64,000 nucleotides of DNA from Halanaerobiaceae bacterium (GCA_003553225.1 PWDW01000024.1:1-64000); one strand, 5' to 3'; positions 11,769-19,935 are shown, counted from the stretch's first letter. Notes: generated by a model not told the origin, from the letters alone. Made by a program: numbers and translations.

Positions 11769-11781
11769 ATTTAACTTTTAT

Positions 11782-11820
11782 ACACAGCCGGTAATTTTGC
11801 CGGTTGTGTATTTATTTTTG
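11782..11820 (+). terminator. Intrinsic terminator
   Basis: ACACAGCCGG (11782-11791) pairs with CCGGTTGTGT (11800-11809), followed by ATTTATTTTT. It separates the MBL/rhodanese gene from the TPR-PglZ operon promoter. Confidence 0.85.
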
Positions 11821-12191: not shown

Positions 12192-13181
12192 ATGGGAGAA
12201 TTTCAAAAGGTAAAAGAAATGGTTCAGAAAGCTCGAAACTTCAAAAAAGAAAAGAAATATGAAAAAGCCCGGGATCTTCTTGAAGAAGGAAAAGAAACTT
12301 ATCCTGAAAATAATTATCTTACTGCCAGTCTGGCTGATGTTTATCTTAGATTAAATCGGATAGGGCGGGCAGAAGACCTGGCTGAAAATGTACTGGCTTC
12401 TGATCCGGAAAACGTCCATGCCCTGACTGTTATGGGTAATATAAATTACCGAAATATGAATTATGAAAAGGCAGAGGAGTATTTTAGCCAGGGCTATCAA
12501 ATAAAGCAGTCTCCTTATCTGGCTTCCAGATTAATCAGGACCTTTATTAGAAGAGAAAAGTATGAACAGGCCCTGGATCTATGTCAGGAACAGCTTACCG
12601 AAAATCCCGATGATAGTCGTTTTACTAAATTAAAAGCTAAAATTTATGATATGCAGGATGAAAGTGAATTGGCTGAAAAAATGCTGGAAGATTATCTTCA
12701 AAAAGAAGAAGATAATTTTGCCTTCAGGGAAAAATTAAAGATAAGACTTAAGGATCGAAAACCCGGAGAGGCGGAAAAAGAGCTGAGAAAAATGTTAAAA
12801 CTGGATAAATATGCAGAAAATATTTATATTCACACCCTGCTGGCCGAAAAGTTAAGAGAACAGGAAAAATATAAGGAAGCTGCTGATGTATACAGGGAGG
12901 CTCTTCATCTGGAACCTGAGGACACATTTATTAGAAAAAATCTTGGTTTAAGTCTTTATAAAGCAGAAAAATATGAAAAAGCCTTACCCTATCTAAAACA
13001 AAGCTGCCGGGAAGAACCGGGGGATTATTATCTTAGAAATACCCTGCAGTTTGTATTTAAACAGCTTAATCAGGAACAGGAAGGAATGAAGTATTTTCGG
13101 GAACTGATTAATGAAACCGGTATGAAAAATCTATGGGGAGCTTATAATAGATTGAAAAAAGAGGTGGATGGGGATGAATAA
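12192..13181 (+). CDS. TPR-repeat protein
   Basis: A 329-residue protein made almost wholly of tetratricopeptide repeats: units with the pattern A-x2-L-x7-P-x-N/D (YEKARDLLEEGKETYPENN, GRAEDLAENVLASDPENVHA, YKEAADVYREALHLEPEDT, YEKALPYLKQSCREEPGD) run from residue 20 to 320. It should be a protein-binding scaffold in the cytoplasm. The ATG at 12192 is favoured over an upstream TTG/GTG because TAGGAG precedes it by about 10 bases. Its last codons overlap the start of the ATPase-PglZ gene (ATGAATAA), so the two are probably translationally coupled and may form a complex. Confidence 0.8.
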   Translation: MGEFQKVKEMVQKARNFKKEKKYEKARDLLEEGKETYPENNYLTASLADVYLRLNRIGRAEDLAENVLASDPENVHALTVMGNINYRNMNYEKAEEYFSQGYQIKQSPYLASRLIRTFIRREKYEQALDLCQEQLTENPDDSRFTKLKAKIYDMQDESELAEKMLEDYLQKEEDNFAFREKLKIRLKDRKPGEAEKELRKMLKLDKYAENIYIHTLLAEKLREQEKYKEAADVYREALHLEPEDTFIRKNLGLSLYKAEKYEKALPYLKQSCREEPGDYYLRNTLQFVFKQLNQEQEGMKYFRELINETGMKNLWGAYNRLKKEVDGDE

Positions 13182-16100
13182 AATAAAAGATCTGATTGAA
13201 GTACCTGAAGTCAGGACTGTGATCCAGCTCTCTGATAGTCAGGACCCGAAACTAAGAAAATTTTTAACCCACAGCTTTTTATTAACCGGGGAAGCAAAAA
13301 AAGTACTGACCTCATTATTCCATAATATTTCAAAAAAAGCAGGAAAAGGTTTTTTTCTGGAGGGAAACTTTGGTTCGGGAAAATCACATTTGTTGACAAT
13401 TATTAATTTGCTCCTTAATTATGAAGACAGCTGGGAGCCTCTTTTAGAGCAGGATGATACCGGTAAACTGAAGAAATATAAGAATGAAATTAAAATAAAA
13501 GATTTTACAACGGTAAATATTTCACTGGTTGAACACAGCAGCTCAGAGAATCTGGAAGATATTATAGGCCGTAAATTAATAGATAATTTTTCATCTTTAT
13601 CTATGTATAAAGATGAAAACACCTATCTGAGGAAAGAGTTTTATCAAACACTGGCCCAGGAATTTGATAACCGCAATTCTGAGGGTCTGATTATTTTAAT
13701 TGATGAACTTTCAGAATTTTTGCGTTCCAAACCTGACGGCCGAAGTTTTAATGAAGATATTCGTTATTTACAGTTTATGGGGGAGTTTGTTACCGGTCGC
13801 AGCTGCTGGTTAATGGCCACACTTCAGGAGGCTATTGAAAAAACCGGGGAAATAACCCAGGAAATATTTGGTAAGATAAAGGATAGATATCCTGTTCATT
13901 TTCATTTATCAGGTACTCATATTAAACAAATTGTATCTAAAAGATTAATCAAGAAAAAACCAGGTTCTGAGGAAATTATAGAAAATATATATAAAAAATA
14001 TAGCTCTTCGTTTAAAAATTGGCAGGTCAATAAAAAACAATTTATTGATTTATACCCCGTTAATCCACTGACTATTTCATTGCTGGATAATTTAAAACCT
14101 CTTTTTTCCCAGCACCGAGGTATTATCGATTTCATACATTACCGCCTTCGCGGTGATGAATCACGAGGGATTCCGGCTATGCTGGCTGAACCTGCTTCTG
14201 TGCTTTTGAATCCAGATTTAATATTTGATCATTTTCTGGACCGTCTGCGTGAGAGGATGGAAACCAGAGAATATTATGAAAAAGTTTTTCGTTATTATGA
14301 ACAGGAGATTTCATCAATTCTGGATGAAGAAGATATTGATACAGGACTGCGTTTGATTAAATTATTGACACTGTTTGCCGTGTCTCCGGTGGAAAAAGAA
14401 TATACTGTAAGTGATATGGTCCATATGGTGATGGAACCGATAACCGATCTGGAAGCAGAAGTAAATTATGAATATATATCAGACCTACTGGAAAAAATGT
14501 ACCATCATGGAGCCTATCTTGTAAGAAATAATAACCATGAGGCTGATCAAGTTAGTTATAAACTTGATCTGGAGGCAGATATAAATCGGATAATTAAAGA
14601 AAAAACCAGATTTATCAGAAGTAATTTTTTTGCTGAGGAAGAAAGGATCTTTACCCGGGTAGGACAGATTGTTGATGAATCATATCTTCCCCTGTCTCGA
14701 CTTCTGGAAAAATCGAGATCAGCCAGGAGTTTAACCTGGCAAAATACCCGAAGAAAAGGTTTTTTTGTTTTATCTGCATTTACTGATATTACACTAAAAA
14801 ATATTTCTCAGGTGCAGAAGCGTCTGCAAGAAGCAGTTTTAAATTCCGAAGATATACCGGAAGACTTTATTATATTTGCCGGCTATCCTCTTAAGGTAGA
14901 AGAACAGAAAGAGTATTTAAAAGAGGTAATATTACCTGAATTAGATGCTGAAATACGGTCTGCATTTTGTTTTTGGCTTCCCCGGGAGGCTGAAAAAAAA
15001 GAATTTTTAAGAGAAGTTTTAGCACGTCAGCTTCTTTATGAACAGTATGAAAATAAAGATGGTGAGACCTCAAATAAAGTACAAACCAGGCTTTCTTCTC
15101 TGCTGCAAAAAGATGCCCAGCAGGCAGCCGCTGTTTTTCGAGACTCATTTTTTGAAGGGGTTATTATTGATGGTAATGGAGAAAATATTTTATCAGATCA
15201 GGATCGGGGACCCGTTTCTTTCAATAAATTTTTTAATAAAATAGCTCAGCAAATTTTAAACAAAAGATATTCTTCTCATGTAGAAATTGCCCCCTATAGA
15301 TCAGTACTTAACAAAAGCCAGCTGAACCGGCTGGCCGGTCATTTTCTGGAACAGGGTGTTATTACCGAACAGGAAGCACAGGATCGAGGAGTTTTGAATA
15401 TAATTGAAGATTTTCTACAGCCCATGGGATTGATAAAAAAAAGAAGCAGTAAAATAAGGCTGGATCTTAATCCAGGTGAAAATCCACTAATTAGAGAATT
15501 TTTTGCCTTACTTGAGCGGGAAAAAACAGATATAAATGATATTTTTTGTACTCTACGAAGAAGCAGCTGGGGGTTGTGTAATCAGCAGTTTATACTTTTG
15601 AATCTGGTTTTATTGTTTGGTGGTTATATTACAGCATATTCTGAACATCAAAAGATAGCTCTAAATCAGCTTAATGTATATAATTTTGATCGAATAAAGT
15701 ATATAGGGCCCGGGGAGATTGTAAATGAGGAATTTCAGGAGATTCTTCAGAAATGTGATTTACTGCCCCCCCGTTTTAAAAAACAGCCTTTTTCACTTCC
15801 CGTACAGAAACAGATGTGGGATTATATTACCGAGTGGAAGAGGGATTATGATCAAAAAGTGGATGATTTGAATACAAAAATAAGCACCCTGCAGCCCGAA
15901 AATGGATTTTCTTTTCTGGATGATAATGAGATAAATAAAATTTTCAACAAATTAAATGATTTGCTGTCAGAGATCAAGGTAAGCTATTCCGCCGAAGAAG
16001 GTCTGGAAAGATTTGCCGCATTTTATCGGAGTTCACCAAATATAGATAGATATCGAGAACGTTTTGAAAAACTGAGTCAGTTTTTCACAGAATATATTGA

Positions 16101-18369
16101 AAGATACAGAGATATGGAAAATTATTTATCAGAGATGCCCGCTCTTACAGAAGATAATTATCGAAAATTAAAAAACAAAAAAGAAGAACTTCAGTCAGAG
16201 CTGCAGGATAGGGAGATTGTTTTTTCTGATGATTTTAGAAAAAATGTAGAAGATAAATTTAAAGAATTTCGTGGTGAATATACCGAAAAATATTATCAGG
16301 AACATAATAAATTTTTTGCAGGAGAAAATTTTCAAAAATACAAAAAAATTAAAGAGAAGAAAAATTATCTTGTCTTATCTTATCTTTCTGATATTGAGAT
16401 GATTTCAGTTAAAAATGATTTTATAAAAGTAAAAAGATTACTGGCCAGGATTTTACGTCAGCAGTGCGGCAATCTAAAACAGCATTATTTAATGCAGAAT
16501 CCGGTCTGCAGATGTGGGTTTAAACCTGGAGATCGGCCGGAAATGGTTTCCCTGGAAGAAATATATGCCCTGATAAGCAGAGGAATAAATGAATATATGC
16601 AGAAACTGATAAGTGATGAATTTAGACCTCTTATTGAGGAATATCTGTCCGGAATGGAAGAAGTCGGCAAAAAAAGATTTGCCCGTCCTATTAGAGATTT
16701 ACTGTCAGCTGCCGATGAGATACAGACCGGTCAGCTTTCTGGGGAGATGATTGAACAACTTGAATCAATTTTGAACAGGAATATAATTAACAGAATAAAT
16801 CAGGCCCTAAAAGGCAATATTTCTCTGGAAGAAAGAGATCTGGAAGAACTTTATGAAAATTTAGTAGGCAGGAGTTTTGCTCCGGACCAGATTAGAAAGA
16901 TTTTCAATGAATGGCTGGAAGGGGACCAAAAGCTTGACCGGCACAGCTATATACGAATTATCACAAAGAAAGACAGAAAACAGCCTAAAAAAGAACAGCC
17001 CGTGGGAGATTATTTAATGGAATATTATCCCGAGCTGCTTAATTTGTTTGATGAAATGGGTTCAGAGCATTTTGTTTTTTATACTGCCCTCTGGGTCTGG
17101 AAAGATAACCATAATATATCCACTGCCAGTATTAAAGAAAAGTTTTCTTTTCCAGAAAAAATCAAAGCTGCAGATACAAAATTATATCATGAAATCTGGC
17201 AGCAGGTTCTTAATCAAGAACAAAATGATAAATTTGAGAACCACATCAAAGTTGGCCAAAAGATGAGAAAAATACTTGATTCGTTTCTGCTGGAGGATAA
17301 CAGGTTAGAAAGGCTGCTGGATCTTCTGTCATTAGAAGAGATAGAGGATATTACCACAGTTTTAAAAAACGAATTTATATCAGAAGAACTGCAAAAAAAG
17401 CTTATTTTACTTCTTTTTAAAACCGGAGAACAGATTTCCCGGCCCCGCTTTCGGGAAGATCTTGTTCCTGAGCTCAGATCAGAAGCTGAAAAGACGTCTG
17501 AGCCCGTTCACAGTTCAGCTTTGCAAACCACAGCTCTGTATTTAGATATTTGTTCGGTTCTTTCTTTTGTAGAAGATACATTTTTAGCCGATGAAAGTAA
17601 TGATGAAGTTAAAACAGAAGAATTTTATAAGAAATATATTTCGAATCTTGAATTTGACTTTTCTCATTTGATTTATCTTACCAGGGAATTAAATATTAAA
17701 TCAAAATTACCGCTTAACAGGTTAAAAAGGAAAATTGATCGGGTGCTGAATAATTTCTCTAAAAGATTTTCTACCTCTAAAGAAAAAATGGATATATCGG
17801 AATTAATTCTGGATCATTTTCCAGATTTGCTGGATAAGATAAGTTTCCAGCATAATTGTGTACTGCTGATGGATGGAATGAGGTGGGATACCTGGGAGAT
17901 AATAAGAGCTGAAATCAGAAAAGATATTCCCTTAAGAATAATTAATGAAGGAAGTATATATGCTCAGCAACCCACAAATACGGAAACCCAGATAAAAAAA
18001 CTGGAAGACAAAGGCTATCCGGGACAGATTATTAAACCCCGGGATTTTAAAATTGAAAATTTACAAAGCCAGGATGATTATGGGAAAAACAATATTACCC
18101 GATTTTCCTATATTGATGATCGGATCCATACTTCAAAAGACAATTATTATAATTTTATGCAGGAAATCATTTTTCATACCCAGAATAGATTGCTGCCTTT
18201 TATAAAAGAGCTGCCCTCCAGAACAGCAGTACTTATATTTTCTGACCACGGCTATCGTATTAATCATAAATTTTCAGAAAGGAATAAATTTGAAGAACCA
18301 CGCTATCTTCATGGTGGTGATAGTGCATTTGAAATTATTGTACCCTGGGCTCTGCTTTATCTGGTATAA
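13174..18369 (+). CDS. Giant BrxC/DUF6079-like ATPase fused to a PglZ-type phosphatase domain
   Basis: A 1731-residue cytoplasmic protein. The N-terminal third looks like the DUF6079/BrxC ATPase group: LIEVPEVRTVIQL opening, Walker A GNFGSGKS (residues 64-71) and Walker B LIILIDELSEF near 170-180. The middle (about 880-1100) is charged and helical with a C-R-C-G motif near 1110, perhaps a partial zinc site. The C-terminal 180 residues carry alkaline-phosphatase-superfamily motifs as in PglZ: LLMDGMRWDTW (near 1560, metal Asp), TNTETQ (near 1600, likely nucleophile Thr), FSDHGYR (near 1690) and RYLHGGDSAFEIIVP (near 1710). In BREX systems BrxC and PglZ are separate proteins. ATG at 13174 is chosen because GAGGTGG precedes it at good spacing. 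Function is inferred. Confidence 0.75.
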   Translation: MNKIKDLIEVPEVRTVIQLSDSQDPKLRKFLTHSFLLTGEAKKVLTSLFHNISKKAGKGFFLEGNFGSGKSHLLTIINLLLNYEDSWEPLLEQDDTGKLKKYKNEIKIKDFTTVNISLVEHSSSENLEDIIGRKLIDNFSSLSMYKDENTYLRKEFYQTLAQEFDNRNSEGLIILIDELSEFLRSKPDGRSFNEDIRYLQFMGEFVTGRSCWLMATLQEAIEKTGEITQEIFGKIKDRYPVHFHLSGTHIKQIVSKRLIKKKPGSEEIIENIYKKYSSSFKNWQVNKKQFIDLYPVNPLTISLLDNLKPLFSQHRGIIDFIHYRLRGDESRGIPAMLAEPASVLLNPDLIFDHFLDRLRERMETREYYEKVFRYYEQEISSILDEEDIDTGLRLIKLLTLFAVSPVEKEYTVSDMVHMVMEPITDLEAEVNYEYISDLLEKMYHHGAYLVRNNNHEADQVSYKLDLEADINRIIKEKTRFIRSNFFAEEERIFTRVGQIVDESYLPLSRLLEKSRSARSLTWQNTRRKGFFVLSAFTDITLKNISQVQKRLQEAVLNSEDIPEDFIIFAGYPLKVEEQKEYLKEVILPELDAEIRSAFCFWLPREAEKKEFLREVLARQLLYEQYENKDGETSNKVQTRLSSLLQKDAQQAAAVFRDSFFEGVIIDGNGENILSDQDRGPVSFNKFFNKIAQQILNKRYSSHVEIAPYRSVLNKSQLNRLAGHFLEQGVITEQEAQDRGVLNIIEDFLQPMGLIKKRSSKIRLDLNPGENPLIREFFALLEREKTDINDIFCTLRRSSWGLCNQQFILLNLVLLFGGYITAYSEHQKIALNQLNVYNFDRIKYIGPGEIVNEEFQEILQKCDLLPPRFKKQPFSLPVQKQMWDYITEWKRDYDQKVDDLNTKISTLQPENGFSFLDDNEINKIFNKLNDLLSEIKVSYSAEEGLERFAAFYRSSPNIDRYRERFEKLSQFFTEYIERYRDMENYLSEMPALTEDNYRKLKNKKEELQSELQDREIVFSDDFRKNVEDKFKEFRGEYTEKYYQEHNKFFAGENFQKYKKIKEKKNYLVLSYLSDIEMISVKNDFIKVKRLLARILRQQCGNLKQHYLMQNPVCRCGFKPGDRPEMVSLEEIYALISRGINEYMQKLISDEFRPLIEEYLSGMEEVGKKRFARPIRDLLSAADEIQTGQLSGEMIEQLESILNRNIINRINQALKGNISLEERDLEELYENLVGRSFAPDQIRKIFNEWLEGDQKLDRHSYIRIITKKDRKQPKKEQPVGDYLMEYYPELLNLFDEMGSEHFVFYTALWVWKDNHNISTASIKEKFSFPEKIKAADTKLYHEIWQQVLNQEQNDKFENHIKVGQKMRKILDSFLLEDNRLERLLDLLSLEEIEDITTVLKNEFISEELQKKLILLLFKTGEQISRPRFREDLVPELRSEAEKTSEPVHSSALQTTALYLDICSVLSFVEDTFLADESNDEVKTEEFYKKYISNLEFDFSHLIYLTRELNIKSKLPLNRLKRKIDRVLNNFSKRFSTSKEKMDISELILDHFPDLLDKISFQHNCVLLMDGMRWDTWEIIRAEIRKDIPLRIINEGSIYAQQPTNTETQIKKLEDKGYPGQIIKPRDFKIENLQSQDDYGKNNITRFSYIDDRIHTSKDNYYNFMQEIIFHTQNRLLPFIKELPSRTAVLIFSDHGYRINHKFSERNKFEEPRYLHGGDSAFEIIVPWALLYLV

Positions 18370-18534: not shown

Positions 18535-19935
18535 ATGGGTAAGAAAACAGGTATTAATAATCATAATAATATTAAATTTACAGAGCTTTATCAGGAATTT
18601 AAAGACAGCAAATTTTACACTAAGCTGTCTTTAGAATCTTTGAGATTTTGTGAAGAGTCAATAAAATTTTTTGTTAACTACCTTAACGAAAAATTTAATC
18701 AGGAGCCCGAAGAATGGGATGCTTTTAGTATTCGCGCTGTAATAGAAAAAGCAGCCCATTTAAATATTAACAACAATTTTTTCACATTTTTTATTGAGAT
18801 AATTCCTCAATTTCTGGAGTTTATGGAGAGCAAATCATATATAGATAAAGACTCTTCTAATCTGTCTGCTGTTGTGGAGATGTATGCTCAAAAAGACATA
18901 GAGAAAAAAAGCTATTTAGCCGAAGATGATAAAACAGATGCAGAAAATGAGCTTCTGAAAGCAGTCCTGGTTGACATTTTAAGGGATAATAACAGCCCCC
19001 AGGATACAGAGGATACTAGAGGAAAAATGAGAAAAAACAATTTCCGGGAAAGCCATAACAGTTTTAAGGAACAGCCTTCCGGTTACTGGGAAGCCCAATA
19101 TGTTCATCAGAGCAAAGATATGGTTATAAAGAAGCTTCTTTCTTTTAGAGAAATAATTCAGGATCATGATAAAATGAGCACCAATTATATCCTGCTATTC
19201 TGGTTAAAAGAGGAAAATCCAACATCTGTGAAGGGCAATTTTTTGATTAATGATAAGCAAATAGTGGTACGTTCACATCGGCAGGATTTTTTTGGAGAAG
19301 CCTGTGATTTAATTGAAGACCTTTTTTCTTTTACTGTTATGTTAAAAGAAAAGAAAAAAATAATTCCTGAAGAGGAGAAGATGAACAGTATACTACATGC
19401 CGGCCAGAGAAGTGATGAAGAATCTGATTTGATAGTCGATATGTTTTTAAATACTCCCCTGGATAGGGAGGAGCTGGGAGAGGTAACTCCCCTTGAGCTT
19501 GCCGAAAACCGAGAAGGTCAGGAAATTCTTAGATATTATATTGAAATCATGGAGCTAAGAGTTCATTTGATTTCAGAAGAAGATGTTCTAAATGAAGAGG
19601 AAATTAAAAAAATCAAAAACAAACTTGGCCTTGATTCCACACAGACAGTGCTTCTGAAAGATGAGATTGAGCGACTGCTTGTAAATAATAACCAGCCGGA
19701 AAGTGAAGGTGAATTTGTCAGCAGCTGTATTGTTCTCTGGCGGGATTTTATCAAATCAGCAGATGATTTGGGAGGCCACCCCGGCAGCTGGGCGGCTGCT
19801 TTAGAATATTTAACAGGTCTGCTGGGAAATTATACATTTACCCAGCAGGAGATTGGAAACAAGTATGGAGTTACGGCCCAAACAATTTCTCGTAAGTACA
19901 GACAGATTGCAGCTGAACTGGGAATACCATTATAA
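18535..19935 (+). CDS. Hypothetical protein with C-terminal helix-turn-helix
   Basis: A 466-residue acidic protein without a clear family. The C-terminal 70 residues read as HPGSWAAALEYLTGLL followed by FTQQEIGNKYGVTAQTISRKYRQIAAELGI, a helix-turn-helix like those at the end of DUF6398/SEC-C-associated proteins; that resemblance is from memory. The N-terminal part (residues 15-100) is helical with FCEESIKFFVNYLNEKF, somewhat like an integrase SAM-like domain; residues 125-260 are polar. AAAGGGG lies upstream of the ATG at rather long spacing. It follows the ATPase-PglZ gene after 165 bases on the same strand and could be its regulator or an independent gene. Confidence 0.6.
   Translation: MGKKTGINNHNNIKFTELYQEFKDSKFYTKLSLESLRFCEESIKFFVNYLNEKFNQEPEEWDAFSIRAVIEKAAHLNINNNFFTFFIEIIPQFLEFMESKSYIDKDSSNLSAVVEMYAQKDIEKKSYLAEDDKTDAENELLKAVLVDILRDNNSPQDTEDTRGKMRKNNFRESHNSFKEQPSGYWEAQYVHQSKDMVIKKLLSFREIIQDHDKMSTNYILLFWLKEENPTSVKGNFLINDKQIVVRSHRQDFFGEACDLIEDLFSFTVMLKEKKKIIPEEEKMNSILHAGQRSDEESDLIVDMFLNTPLDREELGEVTPLELAENREGQEILRYYIEIMELRVHLISEEDVLNEEEIKKIKNKLGLDSTQTVLLKDEIERLLVNNNQPESEGEFVSSCIVLWRDFIKSADDLGGHPGSWAAALEYLTGLLGNYTFTQQEIGNKYGVTAQTISRKYRQIAAELGIPL

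What the first reader, a model, noticed from the sequence alone, without database searches (positions are those of the whole stretch)
12192..18369. TPR protein coupled to a giant BrxC/DUF6079-like ATPase fused to a PglZ-type phosphatase domain
Seen: Walker A (GNFGSGKS) and Walker B at the N-terminus, and the complete PglZ-like motif set (LLMDGMRWD, TNTETQ, FSDHGYR, HGGDSAFEIIVP) in the last 180 residues of the same 1731-residue chain; the start overlaps the stop of a TPR gene. Known: BrxC and PglZ are separate core proteins of BREX phage defence. Inference: a compact, BREX-related system in which both core activities are one polypeptide and a TPR protein is the partner. There is no methyltransferase, Lon-like protease or helicase in the neighbourhood, so it is not a standard BREX locus. 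A housekeeping role is also possible.
Basis: partly seen in the sequence, partly recalled or inferred. Interest (0 to 1): 0.78.

Follow-up and report, generated by a model that had tools for sequence, protein, structure and literature searches.

The report
Single-chain BrxC-PglZ ATPase-nuclease with TPR partner
Two proteins that bacterial anti-virus (BREX) systems normally make separately, a DNA-handling motor and a DNA-cutting enzyme, are here one giant protein paired with a helper gene; the pair recurs across many bacterial phyla, often next to DNA helicases, and seems not to have been described, although whether it fights viruses or maintains the cell's own DNA is open.

Summary
13174-18369 encodes an intact 1731-aa protein. 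Its N-terminal ~1250 residues are BrxC-like (DUF6079 E=3e-52; Foldseek's best PDB hits are BrxC) and its last ~470 residues are a PglZ module that Pfam misses. The PglZ call rests on a confident AlphaFold model (pLDDT 91) whose top hits are BREX PglZ and PorX, on a profile match to a bona fide BREX PglZ, and on near-invariant metal ligands across 40 relatives. The start overlaps a TPR gene (12192-13181).

It is not a local oddity. Of 60 loci from about ten phyla, 43 of 47 with a readable 3' end are fused, and 48 of 54 with a readable 5' end have an adjacent TPR gene; one Firmicutes bin is split into ATPase plus PglZ. Elsewhere the operon includes helicases (RecD2, a distinctive RecQ, a SWIM-SNF2). 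No operon examined contains a methyltransferase, BrxB or BrxL.

Defence is plausible but unproven: distribution is patchy, yet the tree follows phyla, selection is purifying, flanks look like housekeeping, and none was found on plasmids or viral contigs. Best reading: a BREX-derived, methylation-free, single-chain ATPase-nuclease that surveys DNA. I found no description of this fusion in the papers searched.

The parts
12192..13181 (+). TPR protein, ~329 aa (ORF opens at TTG 12159), no evident signal peptide by eye; partner gene
   Evidence: Pfam TPR families to 4.6e-21; RBS before ATG 12192; adjacent to the fusion in 48 of 54 loci with readable upstream DNA
13174..18369 (+). BrxC-like::PglZ fusion, 1731 aa (ORF from ATG 13168, 1733 aa)
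13168..14157 (+). ORC/Cdc6-type AAA+ domain, residues 1-330
   Evidence: Foldseek of the 1-925 model: ranks 1-6 BrxC (9zll, 9zdx), then ORC/Cdc6; DUF6079 stretch 3-327
13363..13389 (+). Walker A GNFGSGKSH, residues 66-74
   Evidence: G66, G69, G71, K72, S73, H74 invariant in 40 relatives
13684..13719 (+). Walker B region GLIILIDELSEF, residues 173-184
   Evidence: D179, E180, L181, S182, E183, F184 invariant in 40 relatives
14158..15942 (+). central region, residues 331-925; corresponds by position to the BrxC wHTH / alpha+beta / wHTH region
   Evidence: AF2 mean pLDDT 87.8; the Foldseek BrxC alignments span ~550-590 columns; domain names from PMC12839542, not separately verified
15943..16947 (+). 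BrxC-like coiled-coil region, residues 926-1260, with Cys1100/Cys1114/Cys1116 (Zn-hook-like apex inferred)
   Evidence: similar to the C-terminal part of BREX BrxC; cysteines invariant in A1
16948..17802 (+). helical connector of the PglZ module, residues 1261-1545
   Evidence: AF2 model 1261-1733, pLDDT 90.7, pTM 0.90; separate gene with the PglZ domain in L095
17803..18366 (+). PglZ catalytic domain, residues 1546-1733; metal ligands inferred D1569, D1650, H1654, D1693, H1694, H1715
   Evidence: 39-40 of 40 conserved; Foldseek PglZ 9zn5_B 6.4e-8, PorX 8tef 6.3e-7
11780..11811 (+). terminator-like hairpin that separates the upstream gene from the TPR-fusion unit
   Evidence: consensus match only
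18535..19935 (+). possible accessory: 466-aa protein with a C-terminal sigma-r4/HTH-like end; homologues sit next to the TPR gene in L067 and L072
   Evidence: weak Pfam Sigma70_r4 0.0034; neighbours; no terminator-like site called in the 165-nt gap

Best explanation
This is a BREX-derived two-gene core in which the DNA-binding AAA+ scaffold (BrxC) and the metal-dependent nuclease/phosphodiesterase (PglZ) are one polypeptide, with a TPR adaptor instead of BrxB. Proposed mechanism: the AAA+ domain oligomerises on DNA with ATP, the wHTH and coiled-coil region holds and dimerises the complex, the TPR protein brings in or senses a partner (in several lineages probably a helicase made from the same operon), and the tethered PglZ domain nicks the DNA. 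There is no methyl mark, so self/non-self or normal/abnormal DNA must be told apart through structure, a helicase intermediate or the TPR contact. Shown here: domain identities, conservation of the catalytic residues, the TPR linkage, the helicase linkage in relatives, strong purifying selection. Inferred: DNA nicking, oligomerisation, TPR recruitment. Role: methylation-independent defence against foreign DNA is my leading choice by a small margin over genome maintenance.
For: BrxC identity. PglZ identity. Metal site kept in 39-40 of 40 sequences. Fusion and TPR linkage across phyla. Natural split in L095 marks the domain boundary. Operonic RecD2, RecQ and SNF2 helicases; the RecQ matches at full length only inside the operon among the genomes searched. 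Patchy occurrence: 9/250 Bacillota, 9/26, 7/22 and, counting fusions, 9/85. dN/dS 0.06-0.14. [quoted passage not shown]
Against: No activity data. Loci lack defence-island character and most neighbours annotated look like housekeeping genes. The tree needs only 13 changes for 13 phylum groups (minimum 12), little sign of the frequent transfer usual for defence systems. The spirochaete RecD2 is the resident copy and also occurs without the fusion. No helicase is linked in the window. The nucleophile Thr is less well conserved than the metal ligands.
Confidence: 0.5

Rival explanations
1. Genome maintenance: a BREX-derived ATPase-nuclease that processes stalled replication or recombination intermediates of the cell's own chromosome together with RecD2, RecQ or SNF2 helicases and a TPR adaptor.
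For: Tree follows taxonomy; resident RecD2 is co-directional and overlapping or nearly so in seven spirochaete genomes; strong purifying selection, at or below neighbouring metabolic genes; no viral-contig relative and only weak BrxC matches on plasmids; 15 of 19 genomes in three related families.
Against: Absent from most genomes of most orders searched, so not essential maintenance; BrxC and PglZ relatives described in the papers read are mostly defence proteins; helicase partner changes with lineage.
Confidence: 0.33
2. Signalling module like PorX: the PglZ domain degrades cyclic or linear oligonucleotides, and ATPase and TPR regulate it.
For: PorX is among the top structural matches; PglZ enzymes cleave cyclic oligonucleotides (PMC11974810); an HTH-type gene recurs beside the locus.
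Against: No receiver domain or nucleotide cyclase found in the genes scanned; helicases rather than signalling genes are the recurrent extra partners.
Confidence: 0.1
3. A remnant or reduced BREX locus whose other genes were lost, with little or no present function.
For: No MTase, BrxA/B or BrxL beside it; a decayed copy in G029.
Against: Same two-gene architecture across about ten phyla, intact catalytic sites, dN/dS 0.06-0.14; fusions form one clade apart from the BREX BrxC rows in the coiled-coil tree.
Confidence: 0.05

Closest known systems
BREX BrxC (PglY, DUF6079) plus PglZ core, with BrxB as bridge
   Same: Same two activities; residues 1-925 match BrxC and 1261-1733 match PglZ structurally
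   Different: One polypeptide; no BrxB and, judged from domain length, no N-terminal BrxB-docking domain of PglZ; no methyltransferase, BrxA or BrxL; TPR partner
Type-3 BREX-Related (BR) systems: DUF499 ATPase with minimal PglZ, BrxB, Swi2/Snf2 helicase and MTase (PMC12839542; PMC13326643)
   Same: ATPase plus a PglZ domain plus, in some lineages here, an SNF2 helicase
   Different: ATPase is DUF6079-type, not DUF499; fused to PglZ; no MTase or BrxB
HerA/FtsK-centred BREX-related capture system (PMC12839542)
   Same: DUF6079 protein and PglZ occur together
   Different: There they are listed as separate components with HerA/FtsK, STAND, DUF4007, GNAT and TGT; none of these was seen beside the window's pair
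PorX (response regulator with PglZ domain)
   Same: PglZ-fold phosphodiesterase with helical linker
   Different: Receiver domain replaced by a giant AAA+ scaffold

Membership tests
BREX (canonical) | BrxC/DUF6079 ATPase | tested here: met
   Pfam 3.1e-52, PADLOC 8.3e-42, structure; but NCBIfam BREX_BrxC 80.9 bits against cutoff 400
BREX (canonical) | PglZ phosphatase/nuclease | tested here: met
   present, but as the C-terminal module of the ATPase; PF08665 itself silent
BREX (canonical) | PglX/BrxX methyltransferase (or phosphorothioation genes in type 4) | tested here: not met
   None among the four genes scanned in the window nor among the operon partners annotated in relatives; an MTase with an MjaI-type REase lies near L073 but is divergent
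BREX (canonical) | BrxB and BrxA homologues | tested here: not met
   Adjacent genes are TPR and an HTH-type protein; no BrxA or BrxB hit. Distant iSTAND/HTH versions not excluded
BREX (canonical) | phage restriction phenotype | not testable with these tools
   needs an experiment
BR (DUF499) systems | DUF499 ATPase as the best match | tested here: not met
   DUF6079 is the hit; no DUF499 hit reported at E<=1
HerA/FtsK BREX-related capture system | HerA/FtsK, DUF4007 and TGT in the locus | tested here: not met
   none of these among the window genes scanned
PglZ domain superfamily | alkaline-phosphatase-type metal site D..T..D/H..DH..H in a PglZ fold | tested here: met
   D1569, D1650, H1654, D1693, H1694, H1715 39-40/40; fold PglZ/PorX; which Thr is the nucleophile is uncertain
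PorX | N-terminal receiver domain | tested here: not met
   N terminus is AAA+

The most novel reading that the evidence does not exclude
A previously undescribed, ancient family of methylation-free BREX-related machines: a TPR protein plus a one-chain BrxC-PglZ ATPase-nuclease, with interchangeable helicases (RecD2, RecQ, SNF2), spread over about ten phyla and inherited mainly vertically, acting either as defence that needs no modification mark or as a BREX-core machine serving genome maintenance.
Probability: 0.5. Interest if true: 0.8.

Novelty: new variant of a known kind. Interest (0 to 1): 0.66.

Why it matters
How BREX restricts phage is still unsettled, partly because BrxC, BrxB and PglZ form changing multi-protein complexes. 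A natural single-chain BrxC-PglZ, with a split version in L095, supports the view that the two act as one unit and offers a simpler object for structure and biochemistry. If it defends without methylation, it raises the question of how self is spared; if it serves the chromosome, it suggests that core BREX parts also have, or came from, a housekeeping use.

Tried and rejected
(1) Pfam's PglZ model on the whole protein and on the C-terminal 233 aa: no hit; resolved with an AF2 model and family profiles. (2) Idea that the stand-alone ~420-aa proteins in related families (L051-L058) are remnants of the fusion: in the coiled-coil tree they lie on the BREX BrxC side of a 100% branch, away from all fusions; rejected. 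(3) Apparent N-terminal extensions of L096, L113 and L115: overlapping wrong-frame reads; the TPR gene is in the true frame. (4) Unlinked copy of the SNF2 partner in Halanaerobiales: no match at E<=1e-100 in relatives; with positive controls at E<=1e-60 none full-length. (5) Viral contigs: none (pattern-limited); plasmids: seven weak BrxC-type matches, none covering 80%. (6) Defence-island test: PADLOC tally over 125 neighbours shows chiefly RecD- and RecQ-type helicase models, the operon partners themselves; no control set was scanned. (7) Conserved genomic site for RecD2 in genomes without the fusion: no shared flanking genes with fusion-bearing genomes recognised. (8) Papers: no text on a BrxC-PglZ fusion or a TPR partner; the library holds open-licence papers only.

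Full report
Observation. The window carries an intact ORF 13168-18369+ (1733 aa; 1731 from the better-placed ATG 13174) whose start overlaps the end of a TPR gene ending at 13181. A terminator-like hairpin at 11780-11811 precedes the pair.

N-terminal part. DUF6079 matches at 3.1e-52 and a PADLOC BrxC model at 8.3e-42; the NCBIfam BREX BrxC equivalog is matched far below its cutoff, 80.9 against 400 bits, so it is a divergent relative. phmmer finds the solved BrxC N-domain. An AlphaFold model of residues 1-925 (pLDDT 87.8, pTM 0.59) has six BrxC chains as its first six PDB matches, then ORC/Cdc6. pTM 0.59 means that the relative placement of its domains is uncertain. Walker A and B residues are invariant in 40 relatives.

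C-terminal part. Pfam's PglZ model does not hit. The AlphaFold model of residues 1261-1733 is confident (pLDDT 90.7, pTM 0.90); its best PDB match is PglZ of Acinetobacter BREX (6.4e-8), then nine PorX chains, then Salmonella PglZ and nucleotide pyrophosphatases. A profile built only from fusion C-termini matches a PF08665-positive PglZ in a BREX locus (L062; PF08665 3.4e-14) at 8.5e-8 for a database of a million sequences, with DGM, PTxT, IDxxxH, SDHG and HGG aligned. D1569, D1650, H1654, D1693, H1694 and H1715 are kept in 39 or 40 of 40 sequences; their role as metal ligands is inferred from the fold. The threonine nucleophile position is ambiguous in part of the family.

Family. Orthologues of 41-43% identity over full length occur in relatives of the window's genome: 15 of 19 genomes of three families, none intact in the other 42. 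A scan of one genome per species found 59 further loci, from Halanaerobiales, Moorella and Syntrophomonadaceae to Myxococcota/Thermodesulfobacteriota, Spirochaetota, Planctomycetota, Fibrobacterota, Acidobacteriota, Caldifarciminota and Actinomycetota. The scan patterns came from Halanaerobiales sequences, so more distant members are under-sampled. Of 60 loci including the window, 43 of the 47 with a readable 3' end have the PglZ domain in the same chain, one (L095) has it as the next gene, three have none; of 54 with a readable 5' end, 45 have a co-directional TPR gene and 3 a divergent one. Most overlap or abut the fusion start.

Helicases. In seven spirochaete genomes a RecD2 gene follows the fusion directly; in four Desulfobacteria-class genomes a RecQ-type gene lies between TPR and fusion; in five loci a SWIM/SNF2 helicase gene is part of the run, upstream or downstream; L154 has SNF2-TPR-fusion-RecD2. 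The RecQ matches at full length only in the operon-bearing genomes (4 of 16 searched). RecD2 is found in 8 of 9 fusion-bearing and 6 of 17 other genomes of the spirochaete order. The window's own lineage has no linked helicase and no full-length SNF2 partner was found.

Evolution. Fusions form one clade separate from the three BREX BrxC rows tested in the coiled-coil tree, with 100% support in a quick tree. In the ATPase tree 13 phylum groups need 13 changes, against a minimum of 12 and a shuffled mean of 25.5; long branches and uneven composition limit this tree. dN/dS is 0.06-0.14 overall and among the highest in the helical connector in most pairs. The gene is patchy at wider range: 9 of 250 Bacillota, 9 of 26 and 7 of 22 in the order or class of two relatives, and 9 of 85 in the Desulfobacteria class after leaving out BrxC-only matches.

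Interpretation. [quoted passage not shown] The fusion joins the PglZ linker and catalytic domain to the end of the BrxC coiled coil, which would make the bridge unnecessary. With no methyltransferase nearby, a BREX-type self mark is unlikely. Defence and genome maintenance are both compatible with what I could measure; parentage, modular helicases and patchiness favour the first, tree shape, resident RecD2 and neighbourhood the second. I rank defence slightly ahead, without experimental support.

Novelty. The 2026 BREX survey (PMC12839542) does not mention TPR, RecQ, RecD or a BrxC-PglZ fusion in its main text, and no paper in the library holds such phrases. Supplementary files and subscription journals were not searched. 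I therefore call it a new variant of a known kind, possibly a new BREX-related type.

Noticed in passing
G000:C57 (L044:6226-12720): The same genome has a separate BREX-like locus: BrxA-like 261 aa (PF08849, E=1.3e-4, just below its cutoff), DUF6079 protein of 1302 aa, and a DUF6361 gene.
   Followed up: partly
L051-L058, e.g. L056:9271-10500: A stand-alone ~420-aa protein (697 aa in L057) homologous to the BrxC C-terminal coiled-coil region, with no Pfam hit, sits in a conserved cluster with CDP-alcohol transferase, amidohydrolase, RadC, VWA, UPF0182 and M16 genes, with TrkH/TrkA and SpoIVA nearby.
   Followed up: partly
window 18535-19935; L067:6654-7982; L072:132-1424: A ~430-466-aa protein with a sigma-r4/HTH-like C terminus (SEC-C motif in the L067 relative) recurs beside the TPR-fusion pair; a fragment also follows a BREX-type BrxC in L047.
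   Followed up: partly
G029:C243:23072-25426 (L043): A fusion copy broken into several frames with missing parts, probably decayed (or an assembly problem).
   Followed up: no
L081, L083, L084, L085: Near-identical fusion genes binned as Bacteroidota, Nitrospirota and unnamed bacteria; mis-binning or recent transfer, and no TPR gene seen beside L081 and L083.
   Followed up: no
L073:844-4413: An MjaI-type restriction enzyme, a DNA methyltransferase and a phage integrase directly beside a fusion gene in a deltaproteobacterial bin; this locus lacks the TPR gene.
   Followed up: no
window residues ~140-150 of the fusion (about 13585-13620): Relative to its closest orthologues the window protein lacks a ~70-residue insert in the AAA+ domain; several other clades lack it too.
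   Followed up: partly
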